Below are positions 2,317-47,233 of a stretch of DNA of 49,652 nt, one piece after another. This stretch comes from Akkermansia muciniphila (GTDB lineage: Bacteria > Verrucomicrobiota > Verrucomicrobiia > Limisphaerales > BJHT01). Positions within the stretch are counted from its first letter, which is position 1, and every line of letters begins with the position of its first letter. The notes beneath the pieces were generated by a model. The model had not been told where the DNA came from. It searched no databases and saw only the letters and a list, made by a program, of their open reading frames with translations. The DNA lies in assembly GCA_945861535.1 (NCBI GenBank), contig CAMAUZ010000061.1, forward strand, positions 1 to 49,652. The letters run 5' to 3'. A program made the translations under genes and the position numbers.

Positions 2317-3705
2317 TCACTGGGTGGAACGTCCACCGACGTCCGGGAAGAATTCCCAGGTGCCACACACGCCAAGGCCAAAGCCCTTTTCACCCAGGAG
2401 CGCGCTGCGCCGGTTCTTGATCGTGGTGGGCTTGGCGTCGCTCCCGTGCCAGTTGAGGGCGGCCGCAAGCTTGCAGGCTTCCTCGGCGGAGGCGGCTTCG
2501 AAGTAGTAAACGGCCCCGGCCGGCACAGCGAGGTGGGCGCTTTGCGCGCCGCCGTTTCGTTCAGAATCGTTGGCGCCGCCTTCATCAGGCAAGGACCACC
2601 CTGTGACAACGAGGGGCTTGGAGACGATGGCCGACACAAGCTTGGCGGAGATATTCCCTTGCTGGCGGGCGCGCTGTCGCCATGCCTCGCGGCTTTCGGA
2701 CTCGCGCCGGGCAACATCACCGGCCTTCAGTAGAACCTCCCCGTTGTGTGGGTTGATCCAGTTCGGCAGCCATCCGCCCGGATGAGCGTTGATGCTCCTG
2801 CTGGCGTCAGCCGCGATGGCCGGCCAGACGGACGGACTCAGAAGAATCCACTTCACGAGGAACCCGGTGTTCCGCTCATTGAACCCGTCGGTTTTGCCGC
2901 GAGGCAGTGGAATCGCCGTTCCGGTAACGCTGTTCGCGGTGCAGACGCGTTGCTGGCCGCCGACGATGATCTGGTGTCGCCCCCCATTCAGGAGCGCCGT
3001 GACGAGGTCCTTGCCGTGTTGCTCGTGTTTGAACTCCTTGTCTTCCGCTGAGGCGCAAACACCAAGCTGCCAGGATTCACGAAGACGGAGGTAATGGGCC
3101 GAGTAAAAGCTTTTGCCGTCCTGACTGCCCGTCTCGGGGTCAATCCCGATGCCGATGGAATGCTCGCGGTCAAAGAGTTCGGAATCGTCGATCGCGTGTC
3201 CTGCCAGTTGGGCGGATGTAAGCGCAGACTTTGCCGTGCCGAGGTAGCCTTCAAAGGCCTCCCGTGAAAGCCACGTCTTGGCACCGGATTCCTTGGAGGG
3301 TGGCAGCCGATTGGCGACGGCATATTCCAACGGATCCGAAAGACTGGATTGGACGGAGTCGAAAGTAGCGGTGGGCAGCAGTCCCGGCTGGAGCGTCGCA
3401 TCTTGGAGATCTTGTGGGCGGGGGAAAAACCAGGCATCCCCGTTCTTCACTGGAAAAGGTCCGGCGGTAACGAGCGAACCAAACTTCCGATCGCGCTGCG
3501 CGTCGTCCGCGTAAAAGCCGCGGGCGCCGCGTCGGTGCGAATGGGCGTCCTTGGCGAACCCGGAGCGATGCAGCGCGGCATGGAAGGCGGCGTTGATGAC
3601 GTTGGGCATCGGCCAGGCCGCGCCATGGCCAGCGGACGCACCGCCCATGGGCCGGCCATCGCGGAAGAAAAGAACGTCCGTGGGTTGGAGGAGAATGGTG
3701 TTCAT
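2317..3705 (-). CDS. cmr3: Type III-B CRISPR RAMP protein Cmr3
   Basis: Cmr3 is the Cas5-like RAMP subunit that binds the 5' tag of the crRNA and pairs with Cas10 at the foot of the complex. The product has 462 residues, at the long end for the family. The N-terminus LQPTDVLFFRDGRPMGGA is the diagnostic Cmr3 motif (F-R-D-x-R-P), and the C-terminus GFGLGVCGTWEF carries the expected glycine-rich turn. It begins 19 bases after the cas10 stop and ends 31 bases before cmr4, in the usual Cas10-Cmr3-Cmr4 order. No frameshift or missing core motif is seen. Confidence 0.93.
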   Translation of the reverse strand: MNTILLQPTDVLFFRDGRPMGGASAGHGAAWPMPNVINAAFHAALHRSGFAKDAHSHRRGARGFYADDAQRDRKFGSLVTAGPFPVKNGDAWFFPRPQDLQDATLQPGLLPTATFDSVQSSLSDPLEYAVANRLPPSKESGAKTWLSREAFEGYLGTAKSALTSAQLAGHAIDDSELFDREHSIGIGIDPETGSQDGKSFYSAHYLRLRESWQLGVCASAEDKEFKHEQHGKDLVTALLNGGRHQIIVGGQQRVCTANSVTGTAIPLPRGKTDGFNERNTGFLVKWILLSPSVWPAIAADASRSINAHPGGWLPNWINPHNGEVLLKAGDVARRESESREAWRQRARQQGNISAKLVSAIVSKPLVVTGWSLPDEGGANDSERNGGAQSAHLAVPAGAVYYFEAASAEEACKLAAALNWHGSDAKPTTIKNRRSALLGEKGFGLGVCGTWEFFPDVGGRSTQ

Positions 3706-3724
3706 GGTTCAGTTGCCTTTCCGC

Positions 3725-33093: not shown

Positions 33094-33270
33094 CACGCCC
33101 TCATTGCATTGTTACGACTGAGTCCGTTCCATCACGGACGAAGTTGCGGCTTGGGCGGTGTGCCGAACGGTAGTCCGGCGTTCCGGAACGGATGCGGTTT
33201 CGCAATTGCGATGAGGCCCGCGCGGGGTAGTCTGCCCGCCGTCCCCTTGAACCATCCGACTCGCTATTTT

Positions 33271-34026
33271 ATGCGCTCCCGATTCGCCCACCGGCATTGC
33301 CTCGGTTTCACCCTGATTGAACTGCTCGTGGTGATCGCCATCATCGGAATCTTGGCGAGCCTGCTGCTGCCGGCGCTGGGCCGGACCAAGCAGAAGGCCA
33401 ATCAGGCCAAGTGTCTGAGCAATCTCCGGCAGTTCGGCCTGGTGGCGCGGTTGTATGCGGATGACTTCAACGAATTGTTTCCGCCGACGATCGGAACCGG
33501 CTCGCTCGGCGCGCCCATCACCAGCCAGTTCTGGTGGTGGGGCAAGACCGGCAATTTGGGTTTTTACGTCAACATGCCGGGGGACCGTCGCTACATAAAT
33601 CCGTATGCCGCCAAAATCTCCGCGACCGATGAGTTCCCGTTGGCGCAGTGCCCCTCGGACCGCAAGACCGTGGCGGGCGGCGCGGCGGTGGACTCGTATT
33701 ACAACCGTGCCGGGTCTTCGTATTCGCCCAATGCCGGCACCTCGGTCGTGCCGACGCTGAACAATCTCACCAAGGATGTGCTCCTCAATTCCGTGCGCAT
33801 GAGTGAAATTCGCGAGCCGGTGCGGATGCTCATCAACGGCGACCACGGGATTTGGTTTCCCATCTGGTCCACGCTCTCGAGCAACGCCCCGCCCGAGGGC
33901 TACTGGCATACGCCACTGAACGACAACCGTTTCAACGCCACGTTTGCAGATGGGCACGCGGAGGTTGTCCGTGTTTTCGTCGGCGTTGGCGCGACGAATT
34001 CGTACACGAGCAACCGGGATTTGTGA
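33271..34026 (+). CDS. Type II secretion/type IV pilin-like pseudopilin
   Basis: The 251-residue product has the class III signal: after a basic leader comes [19 protein letters not shown], with the cut site before Phe and glutamate at position 5 of the mature chain. This helix inserts in the inner membrane and builds pseudopili. The C-terminus ([16 protein letters not shown]) is the H-x-DG type found in large numbers in Planctomycetota and Verrucomicrobiota. I chose ATG at 33271, giving [12 protein letters not shown]. Role: a minor pseudopilin-like surface or secretion protein; no secretion genes are next to it. It converges with the gene at 34042. Confidence 0.9.
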
Positions 34027-34041
34027 GCGGGGCCGGCCGTC

Positions 34042-37000
34042 TTATTTGAACGGAAACTCATCCTTGAGCACCGTCTTGCGGGCGGGGGAGGGCTTGGACT
34101 CCTTCCCCTCGGGGTCGATGTAGGACACGAAGAAATACATCGGGATGGCGGGCTGGAGACCGCGGACGAAAAGGAGTGACGGGTCTTTTTCGGCCTTGGC
34201 GGCAGCGGCCTGCGCACCGGTGCCGTCGGGATAGGCGGAGACATAGACCGTATATTTTTTTGCGCCCGCGACGGGTTTGATTTTCACGAAGACCTGATCG
34301 CCGCTGGCCATGACTTCAGGTGCGTAGATTTTCTCGATCACGGCCGCCGCGCCAACGCCGGAGTCAGCGAGGGCCTTGATGGGATTGGGGAGCGCCGAGA
34401 GTTTGATTTTCGGGCGGGCGATGGTGCGGGCGGCGAGTTGGGTTTTCGCGGCCTGGCCGGTCTGGTCCTCGGGCGAGTTGTAAACGGCGGTCAGGTCGTC
34501 GAGTTCAACGGAGAGATCGTCCACGGGCACCAGCTCGTTCGCGTAGATGATGTCGCTGCGCATTTCAACAATCACGCGGGTGAGAGCGAGCGGGAGATCG
34601 ACGATGCCGTCATCTGAGCCGCCCCAGGAGTAGCAGCCCGGCTCGCGGAAATTGTCACCCGGCGAAGTGACGGGCAGCGGGAACTCAAGGTAGCGCCAGC
34701 CGTCGTGGTTGAGGTAAGAACGCGAGTGGATGTCATCGGAGTTCCAGGCGTTTTTCTCGCCGCAGCTCAGCCAGGTTTCTCCTTTCGCATCGCGGAGTTC
34801 ATAAACCACCCGGTGCCATTGCGACGCGCCTCGGGCATGGATGCCCAGCGCGCGGGCCTGGCCGGGAATGAGAATGGGCTTGGGCGGCGTGAACACGCCG
34901 AAGAAGCCGGCGCAGGGCTGGTTTTTTGGGCGTTCGGTCAGGGTCACGCGCCACGCGGTCGACTTGCGCTCGGAGGAACTGACGCGCTCGGATTTCATCG
35001 GGCGCGGTTCGCGGACCAGATCCCAACTGTTGCTGGCGTAGCGATGATGCGGCTTGGGGTCGGCGGTCCAGAGGGTTTTCTCGAAGTCCTCGAGCACGAT
35101 GCGATGCGGTCCGGGGGCGTCCGTGTAGGTGGGCGTGCCGGCGTGCGCGGCCTTCACTGCGCCGCGGCGCGCGACCACCCAGCGGACGGTGGGCGTGAGC
35201 GTGACGGTGGCGCGCCCATCGGCCAGCCGCAGCGGCGATTCATTTCCGTTCTCATCGGTCTGCGTGAACTGGGCCTGATCGGAATCGGGCGTGAGCGCGA
35301 GGGGGCGCGTGCCGTGAATGGTCCAGACCGCGTACACTTGATGGTCCGCGGCCTGGAAGCGGAGACAGAAGGCGCTGCGGCTGCCGGTCGGGAGCCAGTC
35401 GCGGAACTTCGCCGTGTCGAGCATCCGGGTCATCGTGGCGAAGGCGGCGGCGGAAGGTTTCGGGTGGCTCTCGGGTTCGCGTCCGATGAGGCCCGCGCCG
35501 CCGTAATGCTGGCTGCCCCAGCGGTCGGAGCAATCCTGCAGGCTCCAGGTGTGCATGAACTTCGTGGTGCCTAGCGCCAGCGACAGGACCGCGGTGCGGA
35601 CGATGTTGTCCGCCTGTCCGCGCAGGCCGAGCGCGAGCGGATGGCTCGAGGGAAAATAGGATTCGAGATGGACGAGTTCCTTGTCGGCGAGGCCGCGTTC
35701 GCGCAGTTCCTTTTGGAGAAAATAAAGCAGGCTCGGCTCGGTCGCGCGCGGCTGGCGTTCAGGCATGCGCTCGAACTGCGGCATGTCCAGGCCGAAGCCG
35801 GCGAAGAGTTCGGGCCGCCAGTCTTTTTCACGGAAGAACGGCGCGGGAAAATTCGGCGCGCCGTGCCCGAAGAGGAACTTCACGGTGGGCGCGTATTTCT
35901 TCACGCCCTCGGCGGCGGCGTTGGCGACGACCAGCATCTGGCTGATGCGTTTCTTCTCAAAGTCCTCGCAGGCGAACCACGGCTGGCCGAGCGCCCACGG
36001 CGGAATGCCGTGCGTGAGGCGCAGTGAAATGGAGTTCTCCGCGAAGCAGTTCACGTATTGAAAATCCGGGTGCTCGTCCACGATGGCCTTGGTCCGTTTG
36101 CCCATCTCCTCGCGGTAGGCCGCGTAGTCCGCCGGATCGACGGGGTCCTTCGCGCCCCAGTCGGGGACCTGCCGCGGGACCAGGCGGTGGTGCGTCGGCC
36201 CCAGTCCCCACTGCTTGCGGAAGGCGTCGAAGTTCTCCGACTTGCCCATGCGGTTGTCGGAAGACAGGGCCGACTGGTTGATCGCCCCCAGCGCCCGGAG
36301 CAGCCGCGCATTTTCCGCCTTGTTCGGATTGGTCCCGTGCGTGCCGCTCCAATCCCACACGCCCCACGCGCTGTCGCGCGGCGTGGCCTTGCGGTCGAAC
36401 GCCGGGAGAAACAGGAACGTGCCGGTGCGGCCCTGCTGCCACGCGCCGGCGGAGACAATGGTGCGCACGGTGTGCAGGCCGAACGTGGCCGGCGCGAGCG
36501 GGAACACGGGGATTTGCTCGTCGCCGGGCTTCAGCGTGACCTGGCGTTCGTGCGCGACGGCCTTGCCGTAGGGATCGGTGACTTCGAGCCGCACGCTGAC
36601 GGGCGTGGAAGCGGAGGATTGATTTTGCAGCGTAACCCGCCACGCCGGTTTCTCCGGAGCGGTATAGATGCCGCCTTTCACATCACTCGCGCCGACGGCC
36701 CAGACGGGTGCGGACTCGAGCGTGAGGCCGTAGAGCTGCACGCCACTGGGGAGGCCGCCAGCTTGGTAGGAATAGTTGTTCGGGTCGGGATAGGCGAGGT
36801 GGGGCTTCACTTCCTTGGTCAACTCGAGGTTGAGGTAGGGCGAGCGGAAGTCGGCGGCCAGCTCGGCGCTGTCGAGGTCCAGCGGGACCAGCCAGAGGTT
36901 CAGCATTTTTCCCGCCTTGGTTTTCACCGAGACCGCTCGCGCGCCCGGTCCGCCGGTGGTCGCGTTGAAGGAGGGCACGGTGGCCGCCGCGTCGGTGGAC

Positions 37001-38220
37001 CAGTTGGAAACGGGCTTGAAGAAACGCAGCGTCAGGATCGGCGCGCGGGCCGGGTGTTCCTCGGAGCCGGCCAGAATCCACGCGCGCGCATACGCCCGCC
37101 GAGGAACGGTGAGCATGATGCGGCCCGGCTCGAACTGCGCCGGGCCGGGCGTCGTGACGCGGGGATCGATCTCGGCCGCGTAGCGCGTGCCGTGGCGATA
37201 GCGGAAGAGGCTCGCGCCGATGTCCACGTGGTCGTTGGCGGTGCCGCCGTTGGGGAGGCGGAAGGGGATGCCGTGAAAGCGTGTGGTGTCGGAAGGATCG
37301 CGCAGCGCGGCGAGGTCGAGCGGGCCGGCGGCGTTGCAGCGGAAATCGAGCGGCACCATGACGTGTGGCGTGGCGACGGGGTCGGCGGGGCGGATGGTCA
37401 ATTGCGCCACGCGGGTGGCTTCGTTGCCGGGCAGCGTCAGCATCACGGCACCGGCGGAGTTGGTCGCCGGCGCGCTTTCGCGGACGAGGATGCCGTTGCA
37501 ATACATGCGCACCAGCTCGGGACCGGCCTCGATGCGGAGGGCGATCCAGGTTTTGGATGGCTCGGGCATGGCCGCGAGATCGGCCTCGGTTTCGAGCCGG
37601 AAGGCTTCCGGTGAGAACGGCGAAACGTCGGCCGCGCTGAGATTGAACGCGAGACTGCCTTTCACGGAATGGCCGTCGATCTGGCCGTCCCACACAAAGC
37701 CGCGCGCGCCGGTGCCGCCACCGAGGCGGTAGGCGGGTGCGGCCTTGGCGTCAGCGGACTGGAGGCCGGTGGCGAGGACGGCCTTCACGCTGGCTGCGGC
37801 GCCGGGTGTGGGGCGGTTTGTCGCGGCGGCTTTTGCGCCGGGCGCGGCGGTGTCCGGGAAACGCACCCACGCCTCGGCGACGTAAGCGCCGGAGACTGAC
37901 GTTTTCGAGCGGAAGGAGAAGCTGCCCGCGCGGGCCTTGCCGGTGGTCGCGGTGGCTTGGATTTCGAAAACCTTGCGCCCGAGAATTTCATCCTCGACCA
38001 GCGCGAGCTGGTAGCCGCTCGCCAGCCCGGTGATTTCCCAGCCGGGCAGGCTGGGTGCTTCGATGGGCAGGGTGACGAGCGCGGCTGGCGGCGCGGCGAG
38101 GGTTGGGTGAAGCGCGGCGGCCAGCAGCAGCGCGGCGGTCAGGAGGAGGGTTTGCGGCCAGCGGAGCGAGGGCGCGGCGAAGACGGGAGATGAGGTGGGA
38201 GCGGAGGTCGTGCGTGGCAT
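34042..38220 (-). CDS. Large secreted glycosidase-like protein with C-terminal Fn3-like domain
   Basis: The 1392-residue product has a signal segment (LLLTAALLLAAALHPTLAA), an N-terminal beta-rich part, then a region that looks like a TIM-barrel glycosidase (DSAWGVWDWSGTHGTNP, GKRTKAIVDEHPDFQYVNCF, KFLFGHGAPNFPAPF, LVHLESYFPSSHPLALG). Next is a beta domain with carbohydrate-binding character, and last an Fn3-like module (AGAKKYTVYVSAYPDGTG, QPAIPMYFFVSYIDPEGKES). I chose ATG at 38220 (MPRTTSAP) before the signal; the frame is open to 38343 but crosses a repeat. No family is certain and catalytic acids are not assigned; polysaccharide handling is an inference. It is probably transcribed after the gene at 38471. 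Confidence 0.75.
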   Translation of the reverse strand: MPRTTSAPTSSPVFAAPSLRWPQTLLLTAALLLAAALHPTLAAPPAALVTLPIEAPSLPGWEITGLASGYQLALVEDEILGRKVFEIQATATTGKARAGSFSFRSKTSVSGAYVAEAWVRFPDTAAPGAKAAATNRPTPGAAASVKAVLATGLQSADAKAAPAYRLGGGTGARGFVWDGQIDGHSVKGSLAFNLSAADVSPFSPEAFRLETEADLAAMPEPSKTWIALRIEAGPELVRMYCNGILVRESAPATNSAGAVMLTLPGNEATRVAQLTIRPADPVATPHVMVPLDFRCNAAGPLDLAALRDPSDTTRFHGIPFRLPNGGTANDHVDIGASLFRYRHGTRYAAEIDPRVTTPGPAQFEPGRIMLTVPRRAYARAWILAGSEEHPARAPILTLRFFKPVSNWSTDAAATVPSFNATTGGPGARAVSVKTKAGKMLNLWLVPLDLDSAELAADFRSPYLNLELTKEVKPHLAYPDPNNYSYQAGGLPSGVQLYGLTLESAPVWAVGASDVKGGIYTAPEKPAWRVTLQNQSSASTPVSVRLEVTDPYGKAVAHERQVTLKPGDEQIPVFPLAPATFGLHTVRTIVSAGAWQQGRTGTFLFLPAFDRKATPRDSAWGVWDWSGTHGTNPNKAENARLLRALGAINQSALSSDNRMGKSENFDAFRKQWGLGPTHHRLVPRQVPDWGAKDPVDPADYAAYREEMGKRTKAIVDEHPDFQYVNCFAENSISLRLTHGIPPWALGQPWFACEDFEKKRISQMLVVANAAAEGVKKYAPTVKFLFGHGAPNFPAPFFREKDWRPELFAGFGLDMPQFERMPERQPRATEPSLLYFLQKELRERGLADKELVHLESYFPSSHPLALGLRGQADNIVRTAVLSLALGTTKFMHTWSLQDCSDRWGSQHYGGAGLIGREPESHPKPSAAAFATMTRMLDTAKFRDWLPTGSRSAFCLRFQAADHQVYAVWTIHGTRPLALTPDSDQAQFTQTDENGNESPLRLADGRATVTLTPTVRWVVARRGAVKAAHAGTPTYTDAPGPHRIVLEDFEKTLWTADPKPHHRYASNSWDLVREPRPMKSERVSSSERKSTAWRVTLTERPKNQPCAGFFGVFTPPKPILIPGQARALGIHARGASQWHRVVYELRDAKGETWLSCGEKNAWNSDDIHSRSYLNHDGWRYLEFPLPVTSPGDNFREPGCYSWGGSDDGIVDLPLALTRVIVEMRSDIIYANELVPVDDLSVELDDLTAVYNSPEDQTGQAAKTQLAARTIARPKIKLSALPNPIKALADSGVGAAAVIEKIYAPEVMASGDQVFVKIKPVAGAKKYTVYVSAYPDGTGAQAAAAKAEKDPSLLFVRGLQPAIPMYFFVSYIDPEGKESKPSPARKTVLKDEFPFK

Positions 38221-38320
38221 GACGTGGGCTGGGTGTTTTAGGTGGTTAGAGATGCGCGTTTGTACCCGGCGGACCAGCAATGACAAGGGCGCAGCGGCGG
38301 GGCCGCGGCAGAACGACAAA

Positions 38321-38436
38321 AAAACAAAACCACTAACCGGCACTCACTGGCACTAATGGAACGGGCTGCTGCCAATTCCCAGCCGCAACTTGGCTAGATT
38401 CCTATTAGTGCCGGTTAGTGCCGGTTAGTGGTTTTT
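38321..38436. repeat. Element with inverted ends AAAACCACTAACCGGCAC
   Basis: ACAAAACCACTAACCGGCAC at the left and GTGCCGGTTAGTGGTTTTT at the right are inverted repeats, with two tandem GTGCCGGTTA units on the right. The 116-base element lies between two co-directional genes and may also act as a terminator, since the minus-strand stem is followed by T runs. Confidence 0.7.
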
Positions 38437-38470
38437 GCCTTCCTGCCCCAGCCCGCAGCCAGGTTGTGGT

Positions 38471-39799
38471 TTAAGGCCGTTCCGTCGTCGGGATGTGGAC
38501 CACGGTGATCGCGGCCGATTCCCAGCCGCGCGGCTGTCCTTTGCGCCAGCCGTCCCACGAGATGAAGAAGCGTTCGCCTTTTTCATCGAGCGCGTTGCCG
38601 AACGAGCCGTCGAGGGCGTAGCCGTATTTGTCCCAAAAATGCGCGTGGAGAAACGCCAGCACCTTCCGGCGGCCGGTCTGGACTTCGTATTGCACGATCG
38701 GCGTGCCATCGGCGGCAGCCCCGCCGTGGGCGCCGGGCACGTAGTACAAATATTTTCCGCGCGGGTCGGCCTCGAGGGACGCGATGTATTCCTGTTTGGC
38801 GACGCCGCAGTTGCCGAGCTGCCGCACCGCGCCCGATTTCACATCGAAGGCCCACAGGTCCGCCTTTGTGCCGGACGTGCCATAAACAATGCCCTGCGGC
38901 GTTTCCTGCGTGGCCGAGCGGACGTTGGGCACGTTGGAAGCGGTGATGGTGTTCGACTCCGGATCGTAGCATTTGCCTTCCCAGAAGACCTTGCCGGTTG
39001 AGGGCGAGAAAATGAGGACGCGATAGGGGCCGTCATCGGCGACGAGGAGCAGTTTCCGGGTTTTGAGATCGAGGGCGAAGAACTGGATTTTCTGATTCGG
39101 CGCGTCGCGGCCGACTGCGGTGCCGCCGTAGAAGATCATGCGTTTGGGATCAAGCACGCTGCACGGGATCGTGTGTTTGGCCACGGGATGCGTGGCAACA
39201 ATCTGGGTCTCGCGGGTCTGCGGATGCGTGCGCAGAATCCATTCGCCGAGATAGCCGTTCTGGTCGTGCGTGACGGTCGGCGAGCCGCGGTCGGTGGCGT
39301 AGTAAAGCCAGCCGTCGCCGCCGAGATCGATGCGGCTTTGCATTTCGCCGGGCCGGTAATTCATGCCGGGCGGGAAGGCGTTGACCGATTCGAGAAACTT
39401 CGAGGTGTCCACGAGCTGCCGGAATTGTTTAAGCCGGCCGTCGTATTCCCAGAGATGCGCGGTGCCCTTGGGCGCGAGATGGTCGTTGCTCGACGAGTAA
39501 TATTTGTCGCCCACGACCATGCCGTCGGAGCGATGCGACCACGGGTTTCCCGGATAGTTTTGCTCGGGATAAAAAGCGAAATCTACGACCGGCGGCGTCG
39601 TGGCGATGGAGACGCCGTCGCGCAGATTCGCGCCGGGTTTCAGAAAGAGCGGCGACGAGTCGGTGACGACGACTTGGCCGTCCGGGAGCCGCGGCGGATA
39701 CGGCAGCGGATAGCGGGGATTGGTCTTCGGCGTCTGCCCGTGCGCCGCGGGCAGGAGCAAGGACACGAGCAGAAAAAGGAGGACGCGAAGGGTGTTCAT
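38471..39799 (-). CDS. Secreted beta-propeller-like protein of unknown function
   Basis: The 442-residue product has a signal peptide (MNTLRVLLFLLVSLLLPAAHG) and a repeated beta-blade pattern: HLWEYDGRLKQFRQLV, LYYATDRGSPTVTHD, IQFFALDLKTRKLLLVADD, LWAFDVKSGAVRQLGNCG, YLYYVPGAHGGAAADG. This fits a seven-blade propeller of YncE or dehydrogenase type without clear catalytic residues. I chose ATG at 39799; an open frame upstream to 39859 runs into a gene remnant. It is followed downstream by the glycosidase-like gene at 34042-38220, so the two may be co-expressed. Confidence 0.72.
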   Translation of the reverse strand: MNTLRVLLFLLVSLLLPAAHGQTPKTNPRYPLPYPPRLPDGQVVVTDSSPLFLKPGANLRDGVSIATTPPVVDFAFYPEQNYPGNPWSHRSDGMVVGDKYYSSSNDHLAPKGTAHLWEYDGRLKQFRQLVDTSKFLESVNAFPPGMNYRPGEMQSRIDLGGDGWLYYATDRGSPTVTHDQNGYLGEWILRTHPQTRETQIVATHPVAKHTIPCSVLDPKRMIFYGGTAVGRDAPNQKIQFFALDLKTRKLLLVADDGPYRVLIFSPSTGKVFWEGKCYDPESNTITASNVPNVRSATQETPQGIVYGTSGTKADLWAFDVKSGAVRQLGNCGVAKQEYIASLEADPRGKYLYYVPGAHGGAAADGTPIVQYEVQTGRRKVLAFLHAHFWDKYGYALDGSFGNALDEKGERFFISWDGWRKGQPRGWESAAITVVHIPTTERP

Positions 39800-39822
39800 G
39801 TTCGACAGCCTGGGGCGGGGCA

Positions 39823-39915
39823 TTACGGCTGGCGCAGCAGTTCGATGCGGTCGAACCACGCGTCGCCGCCGAGGGCGGTGGGGGCGGCGAAGCCGAACGG
39901 GGCGGAGCCAATGAC
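39823..39915 (-). pseudogene. 3'-end remnant of a gene related to the heme-binding protein at 43924
   Basis: Read on the minus strand this stretch encodes GSAPFGFAAPTALGGDAWFD, then RIELLRQP and a TAA stop. The gene at 43924-47196 ends LAPTALGGDAWFDRLELLRQP and TGA. About 64 bases are nearly identical (39826-39889 and 43927-43990), after which the two diverge. No further homologous coding sequence is seen upstream of the remnant, so only the last 30 codons or so survive. Either a paralog was deleted or the segment was copied. Confidence 0.7.
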
Positions 39916-40086: not shown

Positions 40087-42753
40087 CTACGTCACCTTCC
40101 CCACCTTGCGCCGTTTCTCCACGGCTTTGCGGATCGACTCCTCCACTTGCATCCAGCCGATTTGCGGCGGCTCGAAAGAATAAATCGTCTTCTTGTCCAG
40201 CGTGCCGCACGCGATGGCCGCCAGCCGCTTCTCCAACGGATGCGCGGCCAGCAGATCATTCCGTTCCAGCGGCACCCAGACCACGGCGCACTCGCCTTTG
40301 TCCGAGCGGTCCAGCGCGAGCGGCAGTTCCGTCATCTGGATGAAGCCCGACACCCGCGCGCCGGTGGTGTAGAACAGCAGCACGATCTCCGCCCGCTTCA
40401 GTTGCTCCAAGATGCCCGTCTCCCATTTCTCCCCGGCCACCAGATCGCGGTCGTGCCACATTTGGATGTAGCCCTGCTGACTGAGCAGGGTCAGGTGCTG
40501 GCGGAACGGCACCAGCTCCTTCTCGTTCACATGCGCGTAGCTGATGAACAAATGCACGCGGCGTTGGGGATTGGGCCCCGCGGCTTCCGTCGCAGCATCG
40601 CTTTCCACCTGATCGAGTGTCTTGGACACGTTCACCACGGCCGGCTCGCCGGCGTCGGTTTCCTCCTCAATTTCCGTGGCCCCCTCGCGCTCTTTCCGGC
40701 GCAGCTTGCGCACCTGCACCCACACGCCGGGATGCCCTTCGATCTCCGTTTCCTCCACCACGCGCACGTTGCCGTGCAGCACGATCAGGTGCGCGCGGAT
40801 GATGTCGAAGAGGCTCTGCTGATCGGGCAACGGCTTGCCGAGCACCGCCACCTCGGTCCGCCGTTCGAGCCGGTCGAGACGCACGAGGGCCTGGCAGCCG
40901 GCCCACTCCAGCACCACGCCCGAGCGCCAGCGCCACGCGGGATGTCCCTCGCTCAATTCGTGAGTCCGCACGATCAGGCGCGGCAGCAGACCCGGCGGCA
41001 GTGCATCGGGATAGGTAAACCGTAGCCGCTGCACGTTCGCCCCGCGGAATTGAGTGAATGGCGCCGGCTGCTCCTCGCCCAGCAGTTCCGGGATCAGCCA
41101 ACGCGTCTCGCCCGCCGCGCCGCCCGCCTTGCCCGACTCGTCCAGCGGAAACGCCACCTCAAACTTCGCCATCAAATCCACCACGAACCCATGCCGCGCC
41201 GCCGGATAATCCTTCGCCGGTAGCAGCGCCGCCGCCAGCCACTCGCTCCGCAGCACCCCGTGGCAATCCTGCTTCTGCGTGTGCCGGATCAGTCCGTAGA
41301 TGGCCTCCGTCACCCACTGCGGTTTCAGCACGCTCGTATGCCGCAGCCGGTGATGATCCCGGAAATTCAGCGCGATCCCCAGCCGGTGCAGCGTCCCCGC
41401 CAGGCTCTCCTGCTGCTGCGCCTCCGCCACCCCGAGCCGCGCGCACAGCTTCTGGTAATCCTGATATTCCAAATAGCTCACCGGCAACTTCTCCAGCTCC
41501 GCCTTGATCCGATGCCACTTCCGCGGCACTCCCAGCCAAACGTCCTTCATCCCGTCCACCGTTTCCACCAGCAGCCCGCGCAACTCCTCAATCCCCAGGC
41601 CCGTGATCGCATCCGTCGCCACAAAGCCCGCGATCTGGGGGCAGCGCTCCTGCAACCGGTGCCGGTCCACGGAAAATTTGTGAGCGTCGTATTTGTTCAG
41701 CGCCACCACCACGGGACTGTCCCCGCCAAAGCTTTGGATGAAACGCAGCCAGTAATCCGTCTCCGTCTCCCAGTTCCCCTCGCGGCCTTCCAGCACCAGC
41801 ACATACACGCACCGCTCGCTGAGAAAAATCTGATGCGTCCCATGTAGGAATTCCTGCCCGCCGAAGTCCCACACATGCGCTTTGGCTCGCCCCTGCGGAC
41901 AGTTCAGTGCCAGCGGCTCCACCGTGATGCCCGGGGTCTCCGGCTCGTGCGCGTCCGGTGGCTGCCCTTGCAGCCGTTTCAACAGCGAGGTCTTCCCCAC
42001 CCGGCCCCGCCCCACTAGCAACACTCGCACCTCCTGCATCGGCGCCGCCCCCTGCTCCTTCCGGGCAAAGTAATAGTCCAGAATCGTCCGCGGGGTCTCC
42101 GGCGGATTTTTCTCGCTCGTTTCGCCCCAGTCTGGCCCGAGCAATTCGGTGGGTAGGCCAAGGGCGGCGTTTCTGTGCAGCGGCAGCATGGTGAGATCCG
42201 TCAGCTCCCGCAGGCTTTCCGGCAGTTCGCGCAACGCGTTGTCTTCCAAAACAAGCGTTTTCAAGTGCGTCAATCGTCCCAGTTCCGACGGCAGAGTGGT
42301 GAGTTGGTTGTGGGCTAGGTACAGCTGCCTCAGCTGCGTGAGCTGGCCAATCTGCGGCGGCAGCATGGTGAGTTGGTTGTTTTCAAGGAGAAGCTCCGTC
42401 AGCATCTTAAGCTGGGCGATTTCCGATGGCAGCGTGGTGAGTTGGTTGTGGGCTAGGTACAGTTGCCTCAACTGCGTGAGCTGGCCAATCTGCGGCGGCA
42501 GGGTGGTGAGCCGGTTGTCGTAAAGTATAAGGTCTGTCAGCGCCGCGAGTTGGCCGATCTGCGGCGGTAGTACGGTGAGCTGGTTCATGGAAAGGTCCAG
42601 CTGCTTCAGTTCCGTGAGCTGGCCAATCTCTGGCGGCAGCATGGAAAGCCCCAATCCAGAAAAGTTTAACTTCGTCTCGGGCTTCCACCAATTGCGACAT
42701 TTTATGATTTCCTGCTGAGCCGTGTCATAGGCCTGCCGCTGCTTCGCGTTCAT
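40087..42753 (-). CDS. LRR-Roc-COR-TIR protein (bacterial Roco family)
   Basis: This 888-residue protein combines ligand-recognition, GTPase and TIR modules. Residues about 28-190 hold seven 23-residue leucine-rich repeats (LPPQIGQLTQLRQLYLAHNQ type). A Roc GTPase follows: P-loop GRGRVGKTSL with Lys254, then VWDFGGQE, then NKYD. A COR region spans about 400-700 (WHRIKAELEKL, FRDHHRLRH). At 730-870 is a TIR domain (RVHLFISYAHVNEKE with Tyr739; MTELPLAL supplies a candidate catalytic glutamate). TIR domains in bacterial immunity often cleave NAD+ or make signalling nucleotides, so a defence or cell-death role is plausible but not shown. There is no signal peptide. It sits alone between a gene remnant and a repeat cluster, which suggests acquisition. 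Confidence 0.92.
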   Translation of the reverse strand: MNAKQRQAYDTAQQEIIKCRNWWKPETKLNFSGLGLSMLPPEIGQLTELKQLDLSMNQLTVLPPQIGQLAALTDLILYDNRLTTLPPQIGQLTQLRQLYLAHNQLTTLPSEIAQLKMLTELLLENNQLTMLPPQIGQLTQLRQLYLAHNQLTTLPSELGRLTHLKTLVLEDNALRELPESLRELTDLTMLPLHRNAALGLPTELLGPDWGETSEKNPPETPRTILDYYFARKEQGAAPMQEVRVLLVGRGRVGKTSLLKRLQGQPPDAHEPETPGITVEPLALNCPQGRAKAHVWDFGGQEFLHGTHQIFLSERCVYVLVLEGREGNWETETDYWLRFIQSFGGDSPVVVALNKYDAHKFSVDRHRLQERCPQIAGFVATDAITGLGIEELRGLLVETVDGMKDVWLGVPRKWHRIKAELEKLPVSYLEYQDYQKLCARLGVAEAQQQESLAGTLHRLGIALNFRDHHRLRHTSVLKPQWVTEAIYGLIRHTQKQDCHGVLRSEWLAAALLPAKDYPAARHGFVVDLMAKFEVAFPLDESGKAGGAAGETRWLIPELLGEEQPAPFTQFRGANVQRLRFTYPDALPPGLLPRLIVRTHELSEGHPAWRWRSGVVLEWAGCQALVRLDRLERRTEVAVLGKPLPDQQSLFDIIRAHLIVLHGNVRVVEETEIEGHPGVWVQVRKLRRKEREGATEIEEETDAGEPAVVNVSKTLDQVESDAATEAAGPNPQRRVHLFISYAHVNEKELVPFRQHLTLLSQQGYIQMWHDRDLVAGEKWETGILEQLKRAEIVLLFYTTGARVSGFIQMTELPLALDRSDKGECAVVWVPLERNDLLAAHPLEKRLAAIACGTLDKKTIYSFEPPQIGWMQVEESIRKAVEKRRKVGKVT
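42295..42502. repeat. Recent 138-base duplication within the LRR coding region
   Basis: About 70 bases at 42295-42364 recur at 42433-42502 with only a few changes (for example GAGTTGGTTGTGGGCTAGGT in both). The offset is 138 bases, exactly two 23-residue LRR units, so a two-repeat block has been copied in frame recently. Confidence 0.85.
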
Positions 42754-42917
42754 CTTCGGGGTGGGTATAGGATGAGTGGGGGTGGTGGATTGGTTTGCGG
42801 CGGCGGCGTCACGCGTGCGGCCAGTTTTGGCAAGAGACGACGCTAGGAGGCTCTCACCTTTTCCCGGCGCGGGGCGAGCTGCTTGCGCAGCGCAGTTGCT
42901 TGCCGCCGAGTTGTTAT

Positions 42918-43083
42918 CTCATTAGCGCCCGGTTTCAGCCGGGTGTGGGGGAATGCGAATCGGCGCAACCGCTTCAGCGGTTTTCGGGCCTTGTCGTCGG
43001 GGTTGGGCCGCCCGCCAAAGCCGTTGAAACGGCTGCCCACTTCACCTCCCCGCAACACCCGGTTGAAACCGGGTGCTAATGAG
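42918..43083. repeat. Element with inverted ends CTCATTAGC-GCCCGGTTTCAGCC
   Basis: The left end CTCATTAGCGCCCGGTTTCAG and the right end CTGAAACCGGGTGCTAATGAG in inverted sense (CACCCGGTTGAAACCGGGTG then CTAATGAG) match almost fully. Inner hairpins include AACCGCTTCAGCGGTT and GCCGTTGAAACGGC. At 166 bases it is the full-length relative of the piece at 30303-30375. Confidence 0.85.
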
Positions 43084-43160
43084 AAGGGCGAAAAAACAAG
43101 CGGCCCCCGCGTGCTGGGGAAAAGCAAAGTCAGAGCCTCCTCACGTTGGCTCCTACCAGT

Positions 43161-43347
43161 CGTTGCGAAAGTTCGTGCCGAAACTGCCGCCACGAGGAGA
43201 GCCTCCGTCTCCCTCGCCCCGTGAGGCACGAACGGGTAGAGGGTCGGGGAGAGGGGTGCTCCACCCATCCAAACGGTCTCACCAGTGCGGAGCGCCTCCT
43301 CTCCCCAGCCCTCTCCTCCGTTCCGAACGGAGGAGAGGGAGCCGGAG
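43161..43347. repeat. Dispersed repeat, copy 1 of 2 (with 14-bp-arm hairpin)
   Basis: It begins CGTTGCGAAAGTTCGTGCCG, contains CTCCCTCGCCCCGTGAGGCA and ends in a strong hairpin, CCCTCTCCTCCGTT-CCG-AACGGAGGAGAGGG. Copy 2 lies at 43555-43740 in the same orientation with about the same length. Confidence 0.85.
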
Positions 43348-43389
43348 ACATACGCCATTTCTTCCGCATCAGCGGGCCACGCCGCCAAG

Positions 43390-43497
43390 TTTGGAATTCC
43401 GCCTTCAGGCGGCCACGGCGTCGCAAATCGGAGCCGCTCCCATTGGCCGACGCCGGTGCTCTCCACGCCCAACCGGCTGAAGCCGGAACTCCGAACC
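43390..43497. repeat. Palindromic element between the two copies
   Basis: TTGGAATTCCGCCTTCAGGCGG at the left and CCGGCTGAAGCCGGAACTCCGAA at the right are imperfect inverted ends of the CTTCAGG/CTGAAG palindrome family. It separates the two copies of the neighbouring repeat. Non-coding. Confidence 0.6.
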
Positions 43498-43554
43498 CGC
43501 TGCGTCCGGTGCGGCGCGTCACGCTTCGTGCGCGCCGTATCACAGGCCATCAAT

Positions 43555-43740
43555 CGTTGCGTAAGTTCGTGCCGGGACTGCGGTACCAAGCAGCGCGTCC
43601 GTCTCCCTCGCCCCGTGAGGCACGAACGGGGAGAGGGCCGGGGAGAGGGGTGCTTCACTACTGCGAGCGGCCCGATATTGCAGAGCGCCTCCTCTCCCCG
43701 CCCCTCTCCTCCGTTCCGAACGGAGGAGAGGGAGCCAGAG
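43555..43740. repeat. Dispersed repeat, copy 2 of 2 (with 14-bp-arm hairpin)
   Basis: This is the second copy of the element at 43161-43347: CGTTGCGTAAGTTCGTGCCG at the start, CTCCCTCGCCCCGTGAGGCA inside, and the same AACGGAGGAGAGGG hairpin at the end. The middles differ, so the copies are not a fresh tandem duplication. Confidence 0.85.
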
Positions 43741-43923
43741 GCCCCAGTGCGGACTGCACGGACTTTCGCAAAGACTGATATGTGCGCCATTGCGGTCATC
43801 ATCGGATTGGGCATGGCGGCGGAGTGTGCCGGAAGAAGCGGGGAAAGGAATTCCGAATTCTCCGGGACCAGGGAGGAAGCGCGCAATGGCGAGTTGGGTT
43901 AACGAGTGCGGGCTTGGCGAAGC

Positions 43924-46900
43924 TCACGGCTGGCGCAGGAGTTCGAGGCGGTCGAACCACGCGTCGCCGCCGAGGGCGGTGGGGGCGAGGCCGGTGAGGG
44001 TGGTGTTGCCGCTGTCCTTCCACAAATCGAGCGTGATGGTGTCCCAGTCGCGTGGGGGCTTGGGGCTGACTTCGCGGGCCTGCCAGCCCGAGGTGTTGCG
44101 GCCGGCGAAGTAGCGACCGGTGGCGTCGTCGGCCTTGGGCCATTGGCCGGCGCGGGCGAGTTCGATCATCACGCCCGCGCCGCTCGCGCGCCAGGTGAGG
44201 CGCAGGTAGCGGAATTCGTTCGGCGCGATGGGGCGCTCGACGATGCGGTAGTTCCAGCCGGGCAGTTGTTTGCTGGCGCGCTGCGGGGGCGTGATGTGGA
44301 GGCAGAGTTTTCCGAAAGCCGCGCCGGAGCTCTCGATGGTGGCGGTGCCGGATTCCTCGGTGAGCAGCGCGGCGAAACCCGGCTCCTCATCGAAGAGCAC
44401 GGTGCGCTGGCCGGTGTCCGCTTTCAGATTGCTGCGCAGCCAGGTGAGCAGGCTCGCGAGGTCGGCGGGCGTGAGGCTCTCGGCGTAGGAGGGCACGAGC
44501 GAGGCGGCGAGGCGGTGGACGCCGGTGATGTCTTTGCGCAACAAGACCTGCTCGACGCCGTTGGGTTGTGCGAGCGTGAGGCTGGTCGCGGCGTCGTCCT
44601 TGAGCAGGCCGACGGCGGGCGCGCCGCCCTGGGTTTCGACGAGCGTGGTTTCGTAACCGGGGCGGATGCGTTCGTTTGGCAGTAGGACGTGACGCACGAG
44701 AGTCTCCTCGGCGACCCCGAGTTCACCCAATAAATCCGGGCCGAAATGATGGCCTTCCTCGCCGATGCGATGGCAGGTGGCGCAGGCGAGCGTGAAGACT
44801 TCGTGACCGCGCTTGGCGTCGCGCGGGCCGTTGAGCGCGGCGACAAATTTGCGGAAAGTCGCTTCGCTGACCTCCATCGCGGGCGGCAGCGAACTGGCGG
44901 GCGCAAGACCCTCGGTGTCGGGCGGACTCGCGGCGAAGGTCTCCTCGAGTGAGCGCGCGGCGGAGCGCACGGGGGCGAGCGGACTGGCGGCGAGCGTGGC
45001 GAGGGTCTTGCGCGCGGCGGCGTCGGCGAGGGGTTTGCGCGGGGCGTTCTTGCGACCTTTGGCGAGGGCGTTGAGCACGGCGGCTTGGGCGTCGGGCTTC
45101 GCGGTGGCGACGAGCGTGAGGGTGCGGGCGAGTTCGGATTCGTCGCGGCGGGCGGCGACGGACTGGGCGAGCGAGGCGAGGAGTGGCGCGGCGTTGCCGG
45201 GTTCGCGGAGGAGTTCGGTGAGCATCTCGGCACCGCGACCGGAGAGGGAGGAGAGGATGGCGGCATCCATCCAGCGGATGCTGAGGCGTTCGCGGGCGAG
45301 GCGGGCGAGCATCGCGAAGGCGCGCGGGTCGCGGGCTTCGCCGAGGCTGAGGGCGAATTGAATCAGCACGCGCGGGTCCTGCTCGGCGGCCGCGGCGGCG
45401 AGCGTGGCGTCGAGCAGGGCGCGGCCGTCGTCGGTGGCGAACCAGCGGTCGGCGATTTGCAGCGCGTGGACGCGCACGCTGGCGGCGGCGTGGCTGACGA
45501 ACGGGAGCAGGTCGGCGGGCGTGGCGACGCCGAGCTGATCGAGCGTGCGCAGGGCGGTGATGAGCGTGGTGGGTTCGGCGTTTTTCGTGGCGAGCAATTC
45601 GCGCAGTGCGGGGGCGGCCTCACTTTCGGAGCGCCGAGAATTGCTCGGCACGGCGGGCGGGTTCTGGCCGAGCAATGCTCGGCGCTCCGTCTCGCGTTCG
45701 ACAAGCAGGCGTTGCGCGGTCTGGCGACGCCACAGGAGCGGGCTGGCGCATTCGCGGGCGAGCGCGGGCGCGTCGAGTTTGCCCAGGTCGAACGTCGGCG
45801 CGGCGGGTGCATCGCGGTGCGTGAGGCGGTAGATGCGGCCGCGGTCGTGGCCGGCGTAGAGGCCGTATTGCTGTTGGAGATGGCGCGGGATGGCCGAGTA
45901 GTCCTCGATGATTTCCCGGTAGTAATCGACGACCCAAATCGCGCCGTCCGGGCCGTGCAGCAGGTGCATGGGATGGCTCCATTGGTCGGTCGTCGCGGCG
46001 AACTCGGATTTCTCCTCGTTCGGGGCGCGGCGGAGTTTCAGCGCGGAGCCGTCGGCCTCGATGAGCGCGCGATGGATGATGTTGCCCGAGGGTTCGCAGG
46101 CGAAGTAGTGGCCGTGCAGGCCCGGCAACGCGCGGTCCTGATACACGAGCGGGCCGCACGCGGAGGTGAACCAGCCGTCGGCCTCGCTCTCGGCCGCGCC
46201 GTAGCGGCTGGCGTAATATTTGAAATAGGCCGGGTCGTCCGCGCGCTTCTGCCGCCACGGATGCGGCTTCGAGAGCGAGTAGGCGCGGCGGTCGCCGGTG
46301 GGGGCTTCGAGGCCCGACGCGCCGGTGTCGGGATTGCGGACGAGATAACGCCACGGCAGCGGCGCGACGTAAATGCCCTGCGACGTGGTGGTCGTGACGA
46401 AGCGGTCGCCGCTCTCGGTGAACGCGAAGCCAAACGTGTGCGTGCTGCCGGTGACGGGTTCGATGGCGCTGCCGTCGGGGCGGATGCGGAAGTCGGTGCC
46501 CGGCAGCGTCACGGGCTTGGCGAGTTTCGGGCCGGTGATGGGACCGCCGTTCCAGCCGCGCCCGAAATAAATCCAGCCGTCCGCGCCCCATTGCGGCGCG
46601 TTGATGCCGCGCTCGAGTTCGCCCGTGCCGAAGCCGGTGAAGAGAATTTCACGCACCTCGGCCTTCCCATCGCCGTCGCGGTCCGCGAGAAAAATAATGT
46701 GCGGCGCACACGCGACGATCACGCCGCCCCGCGCGGGCACCAGGCCGTAGGCGGGCGGGAGGTTCGTGGCCCACACGTCCATCGTGTCCATGCGGCCGTC
46801 GCCGTTGGTGTCGCGCAGGACCTTGACGGTGCCGAAGGTGCCTTTGTCGGCGGCGTGCTTGAACTTCGCGTCGGCCTGCACGCGCCGCACCTGGGTGTCG

Positions 46901-47196
46901 AGCTTGCCGGTTTTGTTCAGCTCCTCGATGTCGAGCTGGCCCGCGAGATTATAGCCGTGCAGTTCGCTCACGAACATCCGCCCGCGCTCGTCCCAGCAGA
47001 TGCCCGAGGGCGACGCGAGCAACGGCTCACTCGCGATGATCTCCATTCGGAAACCCTCGGGCACCTTGAACGCGGCGGCGCTCTGCTCCGGCGTGCGCGG
47101 CTTCGGCGCATCGGTGGGCTGGGGGATTTGCGCGCGGACGTTTCCGACCGCGAACAGGGCGAGGGCGCAGGCGAGCAGGAGGGATGGGGGTTTCAT
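43924..47196 (-). CDS. Secreted propeller/HEAT/cytochrome c-type heme-binding protein
   Basis: This 1090-residue protein belongs to the PVC-type membrane-bound dehydrogenase/heme-binding group. After a signal peptide (MKPPSLLLACALALFAVGNV) comes a sugar-dehydrogenase-like propeller at about 30-450 (FKVPEGFRMEIIASEPLLAS, GICWDERGRMFVSELHGYN, AIWVVDYYREIIEDYSAIPR). HEAT-like helical repeats follow to about 780, then a cytochrome c motif, Cys805-x-x-Cys808-His809 (FTLACATCHRIGEEGHHFGP), with PDLLGELGV and the LVPSYAESLTPADLASLLTW end of the family. A C-terminal domain of about 150 residues (TALGGDAWFDRLELL) resembles a concanavalin-like binding module. The substrate is unknown. A palindromic repeat is translated in frame near residues 503-523. 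Confidence 0.9.
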   Translation of the reverse strand: MKPPSLLLACALALFAVGNVRAQIPQPTDAPKPRTPEQSAAAFKVPEGFRMEIIASEPLLASPSGICWDERGRMFVSELHGYNLAGQLDIEELNKTGKLDTQVRRVQADAKFKHAADKGTFGTVKVLRDTNGDGRMDTMDVWATNLPPAYGLVPARGGVIVACAPHIIFLADRDGDGKAEVREILFTGFGTGELERGINAPQWGADGWIYFGRGWNGGPITGPKLAKPVTLPGTDFRIRPDGSAIEPVTGSTHTFGFAFTESGDRFVTTTTSQGIYVAPLPWRYLVRNPDTGASGLEAPTGDRRAYSLSKPHPWRQKRADDPAYFKYYASRYGAAESEADGWFTSACGPLVYQDRALPGLHGHYFACEPSGNIIHRALIEADGSALKLRRAPNEEKSEFAATTDQWSHPMHLLHGPDGAIWVVDYYREIIEDYSAIPRHLQQQYGLYAGHDRGRIYRLTHRDAPAAPTFDLGKLDAPALARECASPLLWRRQTAQRLLVERETERRALLGQNPPAVPSNSRRSESEAAPALRELLATKNAEPTTLITALRTLDQLGVATPADLLPFVSHAAASVRVHALQIADRWFATDDGRALLDATLAAAAAEQDPRVLIQFALSLGEARDPRAFAMLARLARERLSIRWMDAAILSSLSGRGAEMLTELLREPGNAAPLLASLAQSVAARRDESELARTLTLVATAKPDAQAAVLNALAKGRKNAPRKPLADAAARKTLATLAASPLAPVRSAARSLEETFAASPPDTEGLAPASSLPPAMEVSEATFRKFVAALNGPRDAKRGHEVFTLACATCHRIGEEGHHFGPDLLGELGVAEETLVRHVLLPNERIRPGYETTLVETQGGAPAVGLLKDDAATSLTLAQPNGVEQVLLRKDITGVHRLAASLVPSYAESLTPADLASLLTWLRSNLKADTGQRTVLFDEEPGFAALLTEESGTATIESSGAAFGKLCLHITPPQRASKQLPGWNYRIVERPIAPNEFRYLRLTWRASGAGVMIELARAGQWPKADDATGRYFAGRNTSGWQAREVSPKPPRDWDTITLDLWKDSGNTTLTGLAPTALGGDAWFDRLELLRQP
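45628..45689. repeat. Palindromic pair inserted in frame in the heme-binding protein gene
   Basis: CGGAGCGCCGAGAATTGCTC faces GAGCAATGCTCGGCGCTCCG, inverted copies with one or two changes across about 20 bases. This is the same element type as 22889-22957. It is read through as ERRALLGQNPPAVPSNSRRS in the protein, in the segment between the propeller and the HEAT repeats. Confidence 0.85.
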
Positions 47197-47233
47197 GGTG
47201 GGTGGCGGTTTGGACGGAGATTCAGGACAAGGA

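What the first reader, a model, noticed from the sequence alone, without database searches (positions are those of the whole stretch)
40087..42753. LRR-Roc-COR-TIR protein: candidate immune receptor
The order of leucine-rich repeats, Roc GTPase with intact P-loop, COR and TIR echoes innate immune receptors. A candidate catalytic glutamate stands in the TIR part. It is a lone gene bounded by a remnant and repeats, as expected for an acquired defence gene. I know of no function assigned to this exact architecture.
Basis: partly seen in the sequence, partly recalled or inferred. Interest (0 to 1): 0.65.

Follow-up and report, generated by a model that had tools for sequence, protein, structure and literature searches.

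The report
Candidate LRR-Roco-TIR bacterial immune receptor
This bacterial gene encodes a relative of the human Parkinson's-disease protein LRRK2 that carries a TIR domain of the kind bacteria use to cut NAD and stop infected cells; it looks like a phage-sensing immune receptor, a kind already predicted in print but apparently not yet tested.

Summary
The gene is real: an intact 888-aa ORF (40087-42753, minus strand) encoding LRR-Roc-COR-TIR, nearest in structure to the bacterial LRRK2 homologue CtRoco. The architecture is not new: Kaur et al. 2021 (PMC8195603) predicted LRR-AP-GTPase-COR proteins with at least 24 variable C-terminal domains, TIR among them, as counter-invader systems. My paper searches found no experimental test.

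New support here. TIR residues S738, D768, S802 and E809 align with active-site residues of the NAD-cleaving TIR protein Cat1; D768 and E809 are invariant in 43 of 43 TIR tails. On a Roc-COR tree of 93 proteins the TIR tail changed eight times (at least six forced). In six of 39 scanned TIR-Roco loci the adjacent same-strand gene matches a PADLOC defence model (Septu three; IetAS, PARIS, PDC-S01 one each). The window gene has aberrant codon usage and sits at a synteny break.

Against: scanned neighbours of the three closest relatives are ordinary, the matched neighbourhood test is weak (4 of 15 against 0 or 1 of 15), and no activity is shown.

Verdict: new member of a known, untested kind; probably an NAD-cleaving abortive-infection receptor.

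The parts
40087..42753 (-). LRR-Roc-COR-TIR protein, 888 aa, intact ORF
42139..42672 (-). leucine-rich repeats, residues about 28-205; 6 units by a strict motif; a 27-aa stretch recurs exactly at residues 85 and 131
   Evidence: (five 138-nt copies spaced 69 nt)
41554..42048 (-). Roc GTPase domain, residues about 236-400 (Pfam match 243-356)
41986..42012 (-). P-loop GRGRVGKTS (248-256)
41851..41871 (-). switch II WDFGGQE (295-301)
41080..41526 (-). COR-A domain (410-558)
40630..41028 (-). COR-B domain (576-708)
40102..40560 (-). TIR domain, residues about 732-884
40450..40452 (-). D768, aligned with active-site D33 of Cat1
40348..40350 (-). S802, aligned with active-site S68 of Cat1
40327..40329 (-). 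E809, candidate catalytic glutamate, aligned with active-site E74 of Cat1
39825..39886 (-). 62-bp partial copy of the 3' end of the gene 43924-47376
43926..43987 (-). the matching 62 bp inside the intact gene 43924-47376
42886..43780 (.). dispersed repeats between the Roco gene and gene 43924-47376; about 43549-43780 has 40 further long copies genome-wide

Best explanation
A single-gene intracellular immune receptor of the Roco kind. The LRR array senses an intruder (most likely a phage) product; binding drives the Roc-COR GTPase switch; the switch frees the C-terminal TIR domains to assemble; assembled TIRs cleave NAD+ and stop or kill the infected cell before phage release. Shown here: the intact domain order, intact GTPase motifs, the predicted fold, conservation of NADase-type active-site positions, tail swapping and, in some relatives, neighbouring defence genes. 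Inferred: the trigger, the coupling of GTP state to TIR assembly, NAD+ cleavage and the antiphage outcome.
For: TIR fold: AF2 pLDDT 93.5, best VIA match Z 16.4, 1.9 A over 138 residues. S738, D768, S802, E809 align with Cat1 S7, D33, S68, E74, which line the Cat1 NADase site; Cat1 N10A, D33A, S68A, E74A, K121A, Y122A were all defective in growth arrest (PMC12162218, passages). D768 and E809 invariant in 43 of 43 TIR tails; 41 of these are 19-77% identical to the window TIR. Full-length model pLDDT 86.5, pTM 0.70; top Foldseek match CtRoco 6hlu, then LRRK1/2. CtRoco is a GTP-driven dimer-monomer switch with a large LRR swing (PMC11052575, passages). Window-type TIR tail changes 8 times on the Roc-COR tree, at least 6 forced by starred branches. 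LRR 49-52% identical to the three nearest relatives while Roc is 78-80%. Same-strand adjacent defence models: PtuA then PtuB in L038, L042, L143; IetS in L047; PDC-S01 in L023; fused AriAB in viral contig L102. Window gene is the codon-usage outlier: KL 0.216 against 0.023-0.113 for 10 other in-frame window genes, G3/(G3+C3) 0.66 against 0.25-0.42.
Against: No activity measured. Nine neighbours scanned around the three closest relatives (L141, L142, L019) gave only ordinary families or none (M90 peptidase, PLP enzyme, sugar isomerase-like, two-component pair, carbonic anhydrase). Matched neighbourhood test: 4 of 15 loci against 0 of 15 (one-sided p 0.05), or 4 against 1 (p 0.16) if a generic kinase hit in a control counts. 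Seven of 16 other Roco genes also fall outside the codon range of their few neighbours, so such a departure is common. GTP makes CtRoco monomeric, whereas the Cat1 active site needs two TIRs, so the coupling is unknown. Cat1 K121 and Y122 were not mapped here. The TIR tails were chosen by similarity to this TIR, which favours conservation.
Confidence: 0.55

Rival explanations
1. Thoeris-like division of labour: the TIR makes a diffusible ADP-ribose signal that activates a separate effector encoded elsewhere in the genome, rather than depleting NAD+ itself.
For: Best PADLOC model for this TIR is ThsB (E 1.5e-20; the same model matches 42 of 42 tails). The genome holds a ThsA-like SIR2 match at C36:3267-3965, E 8.2e-22, and a weaker one on C35. 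Relative L062 has a SIR2-STAND gene 224 bp away (partial ThsA match, E 1.2e-24).
Against: No ThsA-like gene beside the window gene in the Pfam scan of its neighbours. In the pooled neighbour scans ThsA is not among the 25 families printed, though single weaker hits would not be printed, and that of L062 was not. The C36 match covers only the SIR2 half (24-240 of 478).
Confidence: 0.2
2. The TIR is a non-enzymatic assembly or adaptor domain; output goes through an unknown partner.
For: Several TIR folds in the match list are adaptors or receptor tails (MAL, MyD88, TLRs).
Against: Invariant D768 and E809 plus near-invariant S738 and S802 at Cat1 active-site positions.
Confidence: 0.1
3. A regulator of the bacterium's own physiology (stress or development), not of defence.
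For: Ordinary neighbours in the three closest relatives; functions of bacterial Rocos are little known (PMC6337361, passage).
Against: Patchy presence (8 of 387 phylum genomes at E 1e-60, the window's own included and at most 2 candidates scored per genome), tail swapping, absence beside both flank orthologues in the congener, defence neighbours in other members.
Confidence: 0.12
4. A secreted effector aimed at eukaryotic cells, as its LRR hits to type III effectors in NCBIfam might suggest.
For: XopAC, XopAE and XopL models match the LRR part.
Against: All far below their cut-offs (118.9 of 450 bits for the best) and only over the LRRs; the family is spread over Cyanobacteria, Planctomycetes, Acidobacteria, Bacteroidetes, Chloroflexi and others. 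Secretion signals and secretion genes were not searched for.
Confidence: 0.03

Closest known systems
Prokaryotic AP-GTPase (Roc)-centred counter-invader proteins, Kaur et al. 2021, PMC8195603
   Same: N-terminal variable LRRs, Roc-type GTPase, COR, variable C-terminal domain; TIR is on their list of tails (section 15 read)
   Different: None seen in architecture.
CtRoco (Chlorobium tepidum Roco; PDB 6hlu, 8r4b, 3dpu)
   Same: LRR-Roc-COR core; top structural match and best Roc-COR sequence match over the full core
   Different: Matched only up to COR (chain 243-943 of 8r4b); no TIR matched
Cat1 (CARF-TIR, type III CRISPR)
   Same: TIR fold and NADase-site residues
   Different: Switched by cA4 binding and filaments through CARF, not by LRR and a GTPase
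Thoeris ThsB
   Same: Closest PADLOC TIR model
   Different: ThsB is a separate TIR protein paired with ThsA (recalled); here one chain with sensor and switch, and no ThsA beside it
Plant TIR-NBS-LRR receptors (e.g. RPP1, RUN1)
   Same: TIR + nucleotide switch + LRR logic (recalled); their TIRs are among the top VIA matches
   Different: Different switch (Roc GTPase, not NB-ARC) and reversed domain order
Brown-algal LRR-ROCO proteins, PMC11378527
   Same: LRR-ROC-COR with diversifying LRRs proposed as immune receptors (passages)
   Different: Eukaryotic, reported with the simple LRR-ROCO arrangement

Membership tests
Roco (LRR-Roc-COR) proteins | Roc GTPase followed by COR | tested here: met
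   Pfam Roc, COR-A, COR-B over cut-off; 6hlu and 3dpu structural matches
Roco (LRR-Roc-COR) proteins | intact P-loop, switch II, NKxD | tested here: met
Roco (LRR-Roc-COR) proteins | GTP hydrolysis and dimer-monomer cycle | not testable with these tools
   described for CtRoco (PMC11052575, passages)
AP-GTPase-centred counter-invader proteins (Kaur 2021) | LRR + AP-GTPase + COR + variable C-terminal domain | tested here: met
AP-GTPase-centred counter-invader proteins (Kaur 2021) | several copies with different tails in one genome (stated as possible) | tested here: inconclusive
   own genome: one further COR-A match, on a 4.9-kb contig, with COR and TIR in two overlapping frames and no LRR or Roc found
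AP-GTPase-centred counter-invader proteins (Kaur 2021) | acts against invaders | not testable with these tools
   needs phage challenge
TIR NADase | catalytic glutamate and NAD-site residues | tested here: met
   S738, D768, S802, E809 align with Cat1 S7, D33, S68, E74
TIR NADase | NAD+ cleavage | not testable with these tools
   needs assay
Thoeris | ThsB-like TIR | tested here: met
   E 1.5e-20
Thoeris | ThsA gene beside it | tested here: not met
   left neighbour without a Pfam family over cut-off, right neighbour a PVC-type heme protein, no SIR2 in either; partial ThsA-like matches only elsewhere, C36 and C35
NLR (STAND/NB-ARC) receptors | STAND ATPase switch | tested here: not met
   switch is a Roc GTPase; no NB-ARC or NACHT among 16 Pfam families listed at E 1

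The most novel reading that the evidence does not exclude
Bacterial LRRK2 homologues with TIR tails are GTP-switched, single-chain phage receptors: a switch class for TIR immunity distinct from STAND/NLR and cyclic-nucleotide systems, whose sensor (LRR or, in other proteins of this genome, WD40) and effector ends are exchanged around a constant GTPase, and which in some lineages are wired to a Septu nuclease in one operon.
Probability: 0.4. Interest if true: 0.8.

Novelty: new member of a known kind. Interest (0 to 1): 0.42.

Why it matters
[quoted passage not shown] If LRR-Roc-COR-TIR proteins are phage receptors, that gives bacterial Rocos a physiological role with a simple read-out (NAD+ loss), makes GTP switching of a Roco testable in live cells, and adds weight to an ancient immune role of the LRRK2 family.

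Tried and rejected
Considered and rejected: membership in Thoeris (no ThsA beside it); NLR proper (no STAND ATPase); type III effector (NCBIfam LRR hits far below cut-off); dispersed repeats as a mark of a defence island (40 further long copies genome-wide). Led nowhere: phmmer of the TIR alone against PDB (0 hits at E 1; the profile of 42 tails then gave 31); plasmids (52 records, none covering 80% of the query) and phages (3 records, LRR part only); a reciprocal test with the Roco-linked PtuA (2 of 387 phylum genomes, one of them the source of the query and the other 29% identical); the paper search (0 papers).

Not shown: the empty site. In the congener G001 the left flank (window 33190-39800) is 88-92% identical and the match stops at 39800; the right-hand gene lies on another contig; neither stretch held a Roco match, so the ancestral order is unknown.

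Rows dropped: duplicates L002, L006, L007, L008 (same places as L001 and L010); three non-TIR tails under 45 aa (49 of 52 scanned); 8 of 37 TIR loci of the search for related loci left out of the full-length alignment as truncated or divergent; neighbour proteins under 120 aa in all neighbour scans, and those over 1200 aa (3 cases and 1 control), left out; L009 and L058 had flanks too short to scan; L101 and L010 are not in the tree. The RAMP row was cut out of frame (9 stops) and is ignored, though its codons stayed in the pooled reference. The query was in the wrong frame and says nothing.
Full report
WHAT IS THERE. The ORF at 40087-42753 (minus strand) is intact, 888 aa. Pfam finds LRRs, Roc (E 1.3e-21), COR-A (5.3e-32), COR-B (7.1e-17) and TIR_2 (1.7e-7), all over cut-off. 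The window is contig C61 of a 7.9-Mb, 169-contig genome. An AlphaFold model from 30 aligned proteins has pLDDT 86.5 and pTM 0.70; its top PDB matches by Foldseek are the LRR-Roc-COR structure of CtRoco (6hlu), then LRRK1 and LRRK2. The TIR alone folds with pLDDT 93.5 and matches plant, animal and bacterial TIRs (best Z 16.4, 1.9 A over 138 residues).

RELATIVES. In a sample of the phylum, 8 of 387 genomes (the window's own included) hold a match at E 1e-60 or better, with at most two candidates scored per genome. Both genomes of the genus have one, but the congener's is only 43% identical. Among all fetched loci, 42 proteins (the window's included; some cut by contig ends) have a TIR tail similar to the window's, plus one TIR beside a COR fragment in the same genome, 43 in all. 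On the tree the TIR-tailed ones come from Verrucomicrobiota, Planctomycetota, Cyanobacteriota, Acidobacteriota, Bacteroidota, Chloroflexota, Binatota, Thermodesulfobacteriota, KSB1 and a viral contig. Four viral contigs hold a Roco relative, two of them (L101, L102) with TIR.

THE TIR LOOKS CATALYTIC. In the 43 tails the only fully invariant positions are D768 and E809; S738 (41 of 43), Y739 (42), W766 (42) and S802 (41 S, 2 T) are nearly so. A profile of 42 tails matches Cat1, a CRISPR-associated TIR, at E 5.4e-10. Reading residue numbers off that alignment, S738, D768, S802 and E809 fall on Cat1 S7, D33, S68 and E74. The Cat1 paper (PMC12162218, passages) lists these among the residues lining the NADase site; alanine at N10, D33, S68, E74, K121 or Y122 was defective in growth arrest, and D33A lowered cleavage only in part in vitro. 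This is good evidence for an NAD-type active site; it is not a measurement.

MODULAR ENDS. Of 52 other tails, 49 were scanned with Pfam at E 0.001: TIR_2 matches four and TIR four (overlap not printed), EAD7 three, CHAT two, MCU two, trypsin and EAD1 one each; the others no family. On a Roc-COR tree of 93 proteins the label 'window-type TIR tail' (41 rows) needs 8 changes, at least 6 forced by starred branches, against 30.8 in shuffles; the Nostoc pair L063 (TIR) and L084 (no such TIR) are starred sisters. The label is clustered, so swapping is repeated but not rampant; several long branches make single placements unsure, and a few 'other' rows bear a different TIR. Against the three nearest relatives, Roc is 78-80% identical, COR 61-70%, TIR 45-80% and LRR 49-52%. 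LRR number by a strict motif ranges from 0 to 15 in the 42 proteins (0 includes cut or divergent arrays), 6 here and 15 in the 69% relative. In the window protein a 27-aa stretch recurs exactly at residues 85 and 131, and 138-nt pairs of repeat units are 61-84% alike: the array has grown by duplication.

NEIGHBOURS. I called ORFs in the flanks, clustered them and scanned neighbours of 39 TIR-Roco loci with PADLOC (15 loci to 6 kb; 24 loci to 4 kb), then 20 chosen proteins one by one. Directly beside the Roco-TIR gene on the same strand: PtuA then PtuB (Septu) downstream in L038, L042 and L143 (PtuA E 4.5e-74 to 5.3e-71, PtuB 5e-49 to 1.8e-37; gaps -25 to 52 bp); IetS upstream in L047 (E 7e-264, 53 bp; IetA models match two case proteins, and I infer that one is the gene before IetS); PDC-S01 upstream in L023 (E 7e-158, adjoining); fused AriAB (PARIS) upstream in viral contig L102 (E 1.7e-133, 60 bp). 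That is six of 39, a lower bound, because the pooled scans print 25 families without saying which protein was hit. L062 has a SIR2-STAND gene on the opposite strand, 224 bp away. Of the 20 proteins tested one by one, 10 had no hit. Other strong hits within 4 kb (HEC-06, Orf5, DpdE, PDC-M50A) were not traced to single genes.

CONTROL. For 15 loci I took one stretch from the same contig, about 20 kb or more from the Roco gene, and scanned 12 kb of it. Cases (125 proteins): Septu in two loci, IetAS in one and PDC-S01 in one. Controls (139 proteins): only isolated or generic matches (mad2, mad3, mad6, HTH_VI, RtcR, an RT-associated helicase model, GajB-type UvrD helicase, the kinase PD-T4-6). Only the first 25 families are printed; in the controls they reach down to E 1.4e-48, so weaker hits are unseen. 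Which hits count as real systems is my judgement: 4 of 15 against 0 of 15 gives one-sided p 0.05; counting PD-T4-6 as a one-gene system, 4 against 1, p 0.16. Suggestive only. Against the reading: of nine neighbours scanned around the three closest relatives none belongs to a defence family in Pfam.

ACQUISITION. Synonymous codon use of the window gene is the outlier of 11 in-frame window genes (KL 0.216, others 0.023-0.113); its coding strand has GC skew +0.12 where the others are negative, and G3/(G3+C3) is 0.66 against 0.25-0.42. This is not a fixed family trait: in 16 other loci Roco genes range 0.34-0.68; 9 of the 16 lie within the range of their neighbours and 7 do not. In the congener the left flank is 88-92% identical up to window 39800 and then the match stops; the right-hand gene (79% protein identity) is on another contig, and neither stretch holds a Roco match. 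A stretch some 4 kb beyond the left flank in the congener maps elsewhere in the window's genome (C135, 93%). The 62-bp scar at 39825-39886 is 97% identical to the window's own neighbouring gene and 92% to the congener's, so the duplication is probably recent in this lineage. So the gene is lineage-specific, sits at a rearrangement point, and probably came from outside; no integrase was recognised, but I did not search for one beyond the scans named.

LITERATURE. Kaur et al. 2021 (PMC8195603, section 15 read in full; other passages) describe this very layout, list TIR among at least 24 tails, and call the systems counter-invader; I saw no experiment in that section. Kaur et al. 2020 (PMC7159879, passages) mention AP-GTPase with COR in cyanobacterial and verrucomicrobial conflict systems. 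Wauters et al. 2019 (PMC6337361, passages) say very little is known of Roco functions in bacteria and archaea. Searches for a phage test of a Roco (listings only) showed none; the library lacks most subscription papers, so this is a weak negative. What Septu, IetAS and PARIS do is recalled; their names here come from PADLOC.

VERDICT. A real, probably acquired LRR-Roc-COR-TIR receptor; new member of a predicted, untested kind. Most likely mechanism: LRR sensing, GTP switch, TIR assembly, NAD+ cleavage and abortive infection. The exact coupling is open, because GTP opens and monomerises CtRoco (PMC11052575, passages) while the Cat1 site needs two TIRs.

Noticed in passing
window 1404-6553 (-): Type III-B CRISPR-Cas genes near the contig edge: Cas10/Cmr2 (3728-6553), Cmr3 (2320-3705) and a RAMP protein (1404-2720); about 34 kb from the Roco gene.
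   Followed up: partly
L154 (G000:C25) 2112-5861 and L155 (G000:C7) 2833-6453: Two more large proteins of the same genome with an N-terminal TIR and a Roc-like GTPase stretch; L155 has a WD40 region (PDB matches); L154 has two TIR matches and, by eye, WD40-like repeats. They look like the same switch with WD40 in place of LRR as sensor.
   Followed up: partly
G000 whole genome: TIR-rich genome: 14 of 15 TIR_2 matches are over the curated cut-off, and a partial ThsA-like SIR2 match lies at C36:3267-3965.
   Followed up: no
L010 (G000:C164) 1785-3133: COR and TIR of a second Roco in two overlapping frames, no LRR or Roc found, on a 4.9-kb contig: a degraded copy or two genes.
   Followed up: partly
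L038 13374-15349, L042 12480-14323, L143 11354-13275: Septu pair PtuA-PtuB directly downstream of LRR-Roc-COR-TIR genes in three verrucomicrobial genomes, possibly one operon; matches to this PtuA at E 1e-30 in 2 of 387 phylum genomes, at most 4 candidates scored per genome.
   Followed up: partly
L060, L061 C-terminal tails: The Pfam family MCU (mitochondrial calcium uniporter) matches 2 of 49 non-TIR tails of Roc-COR proteins; by their transmembrane-rich sequence I take these to be L060 and L061: a possible channel effector on a Roco.
   Followed up: no
L102 (IMGVR_UViG_3300028585_000519): A divergent Roco-TIR gene directly after a fused AriAB (PARIS) gene on a contig listed as viral.
   Followed up: no
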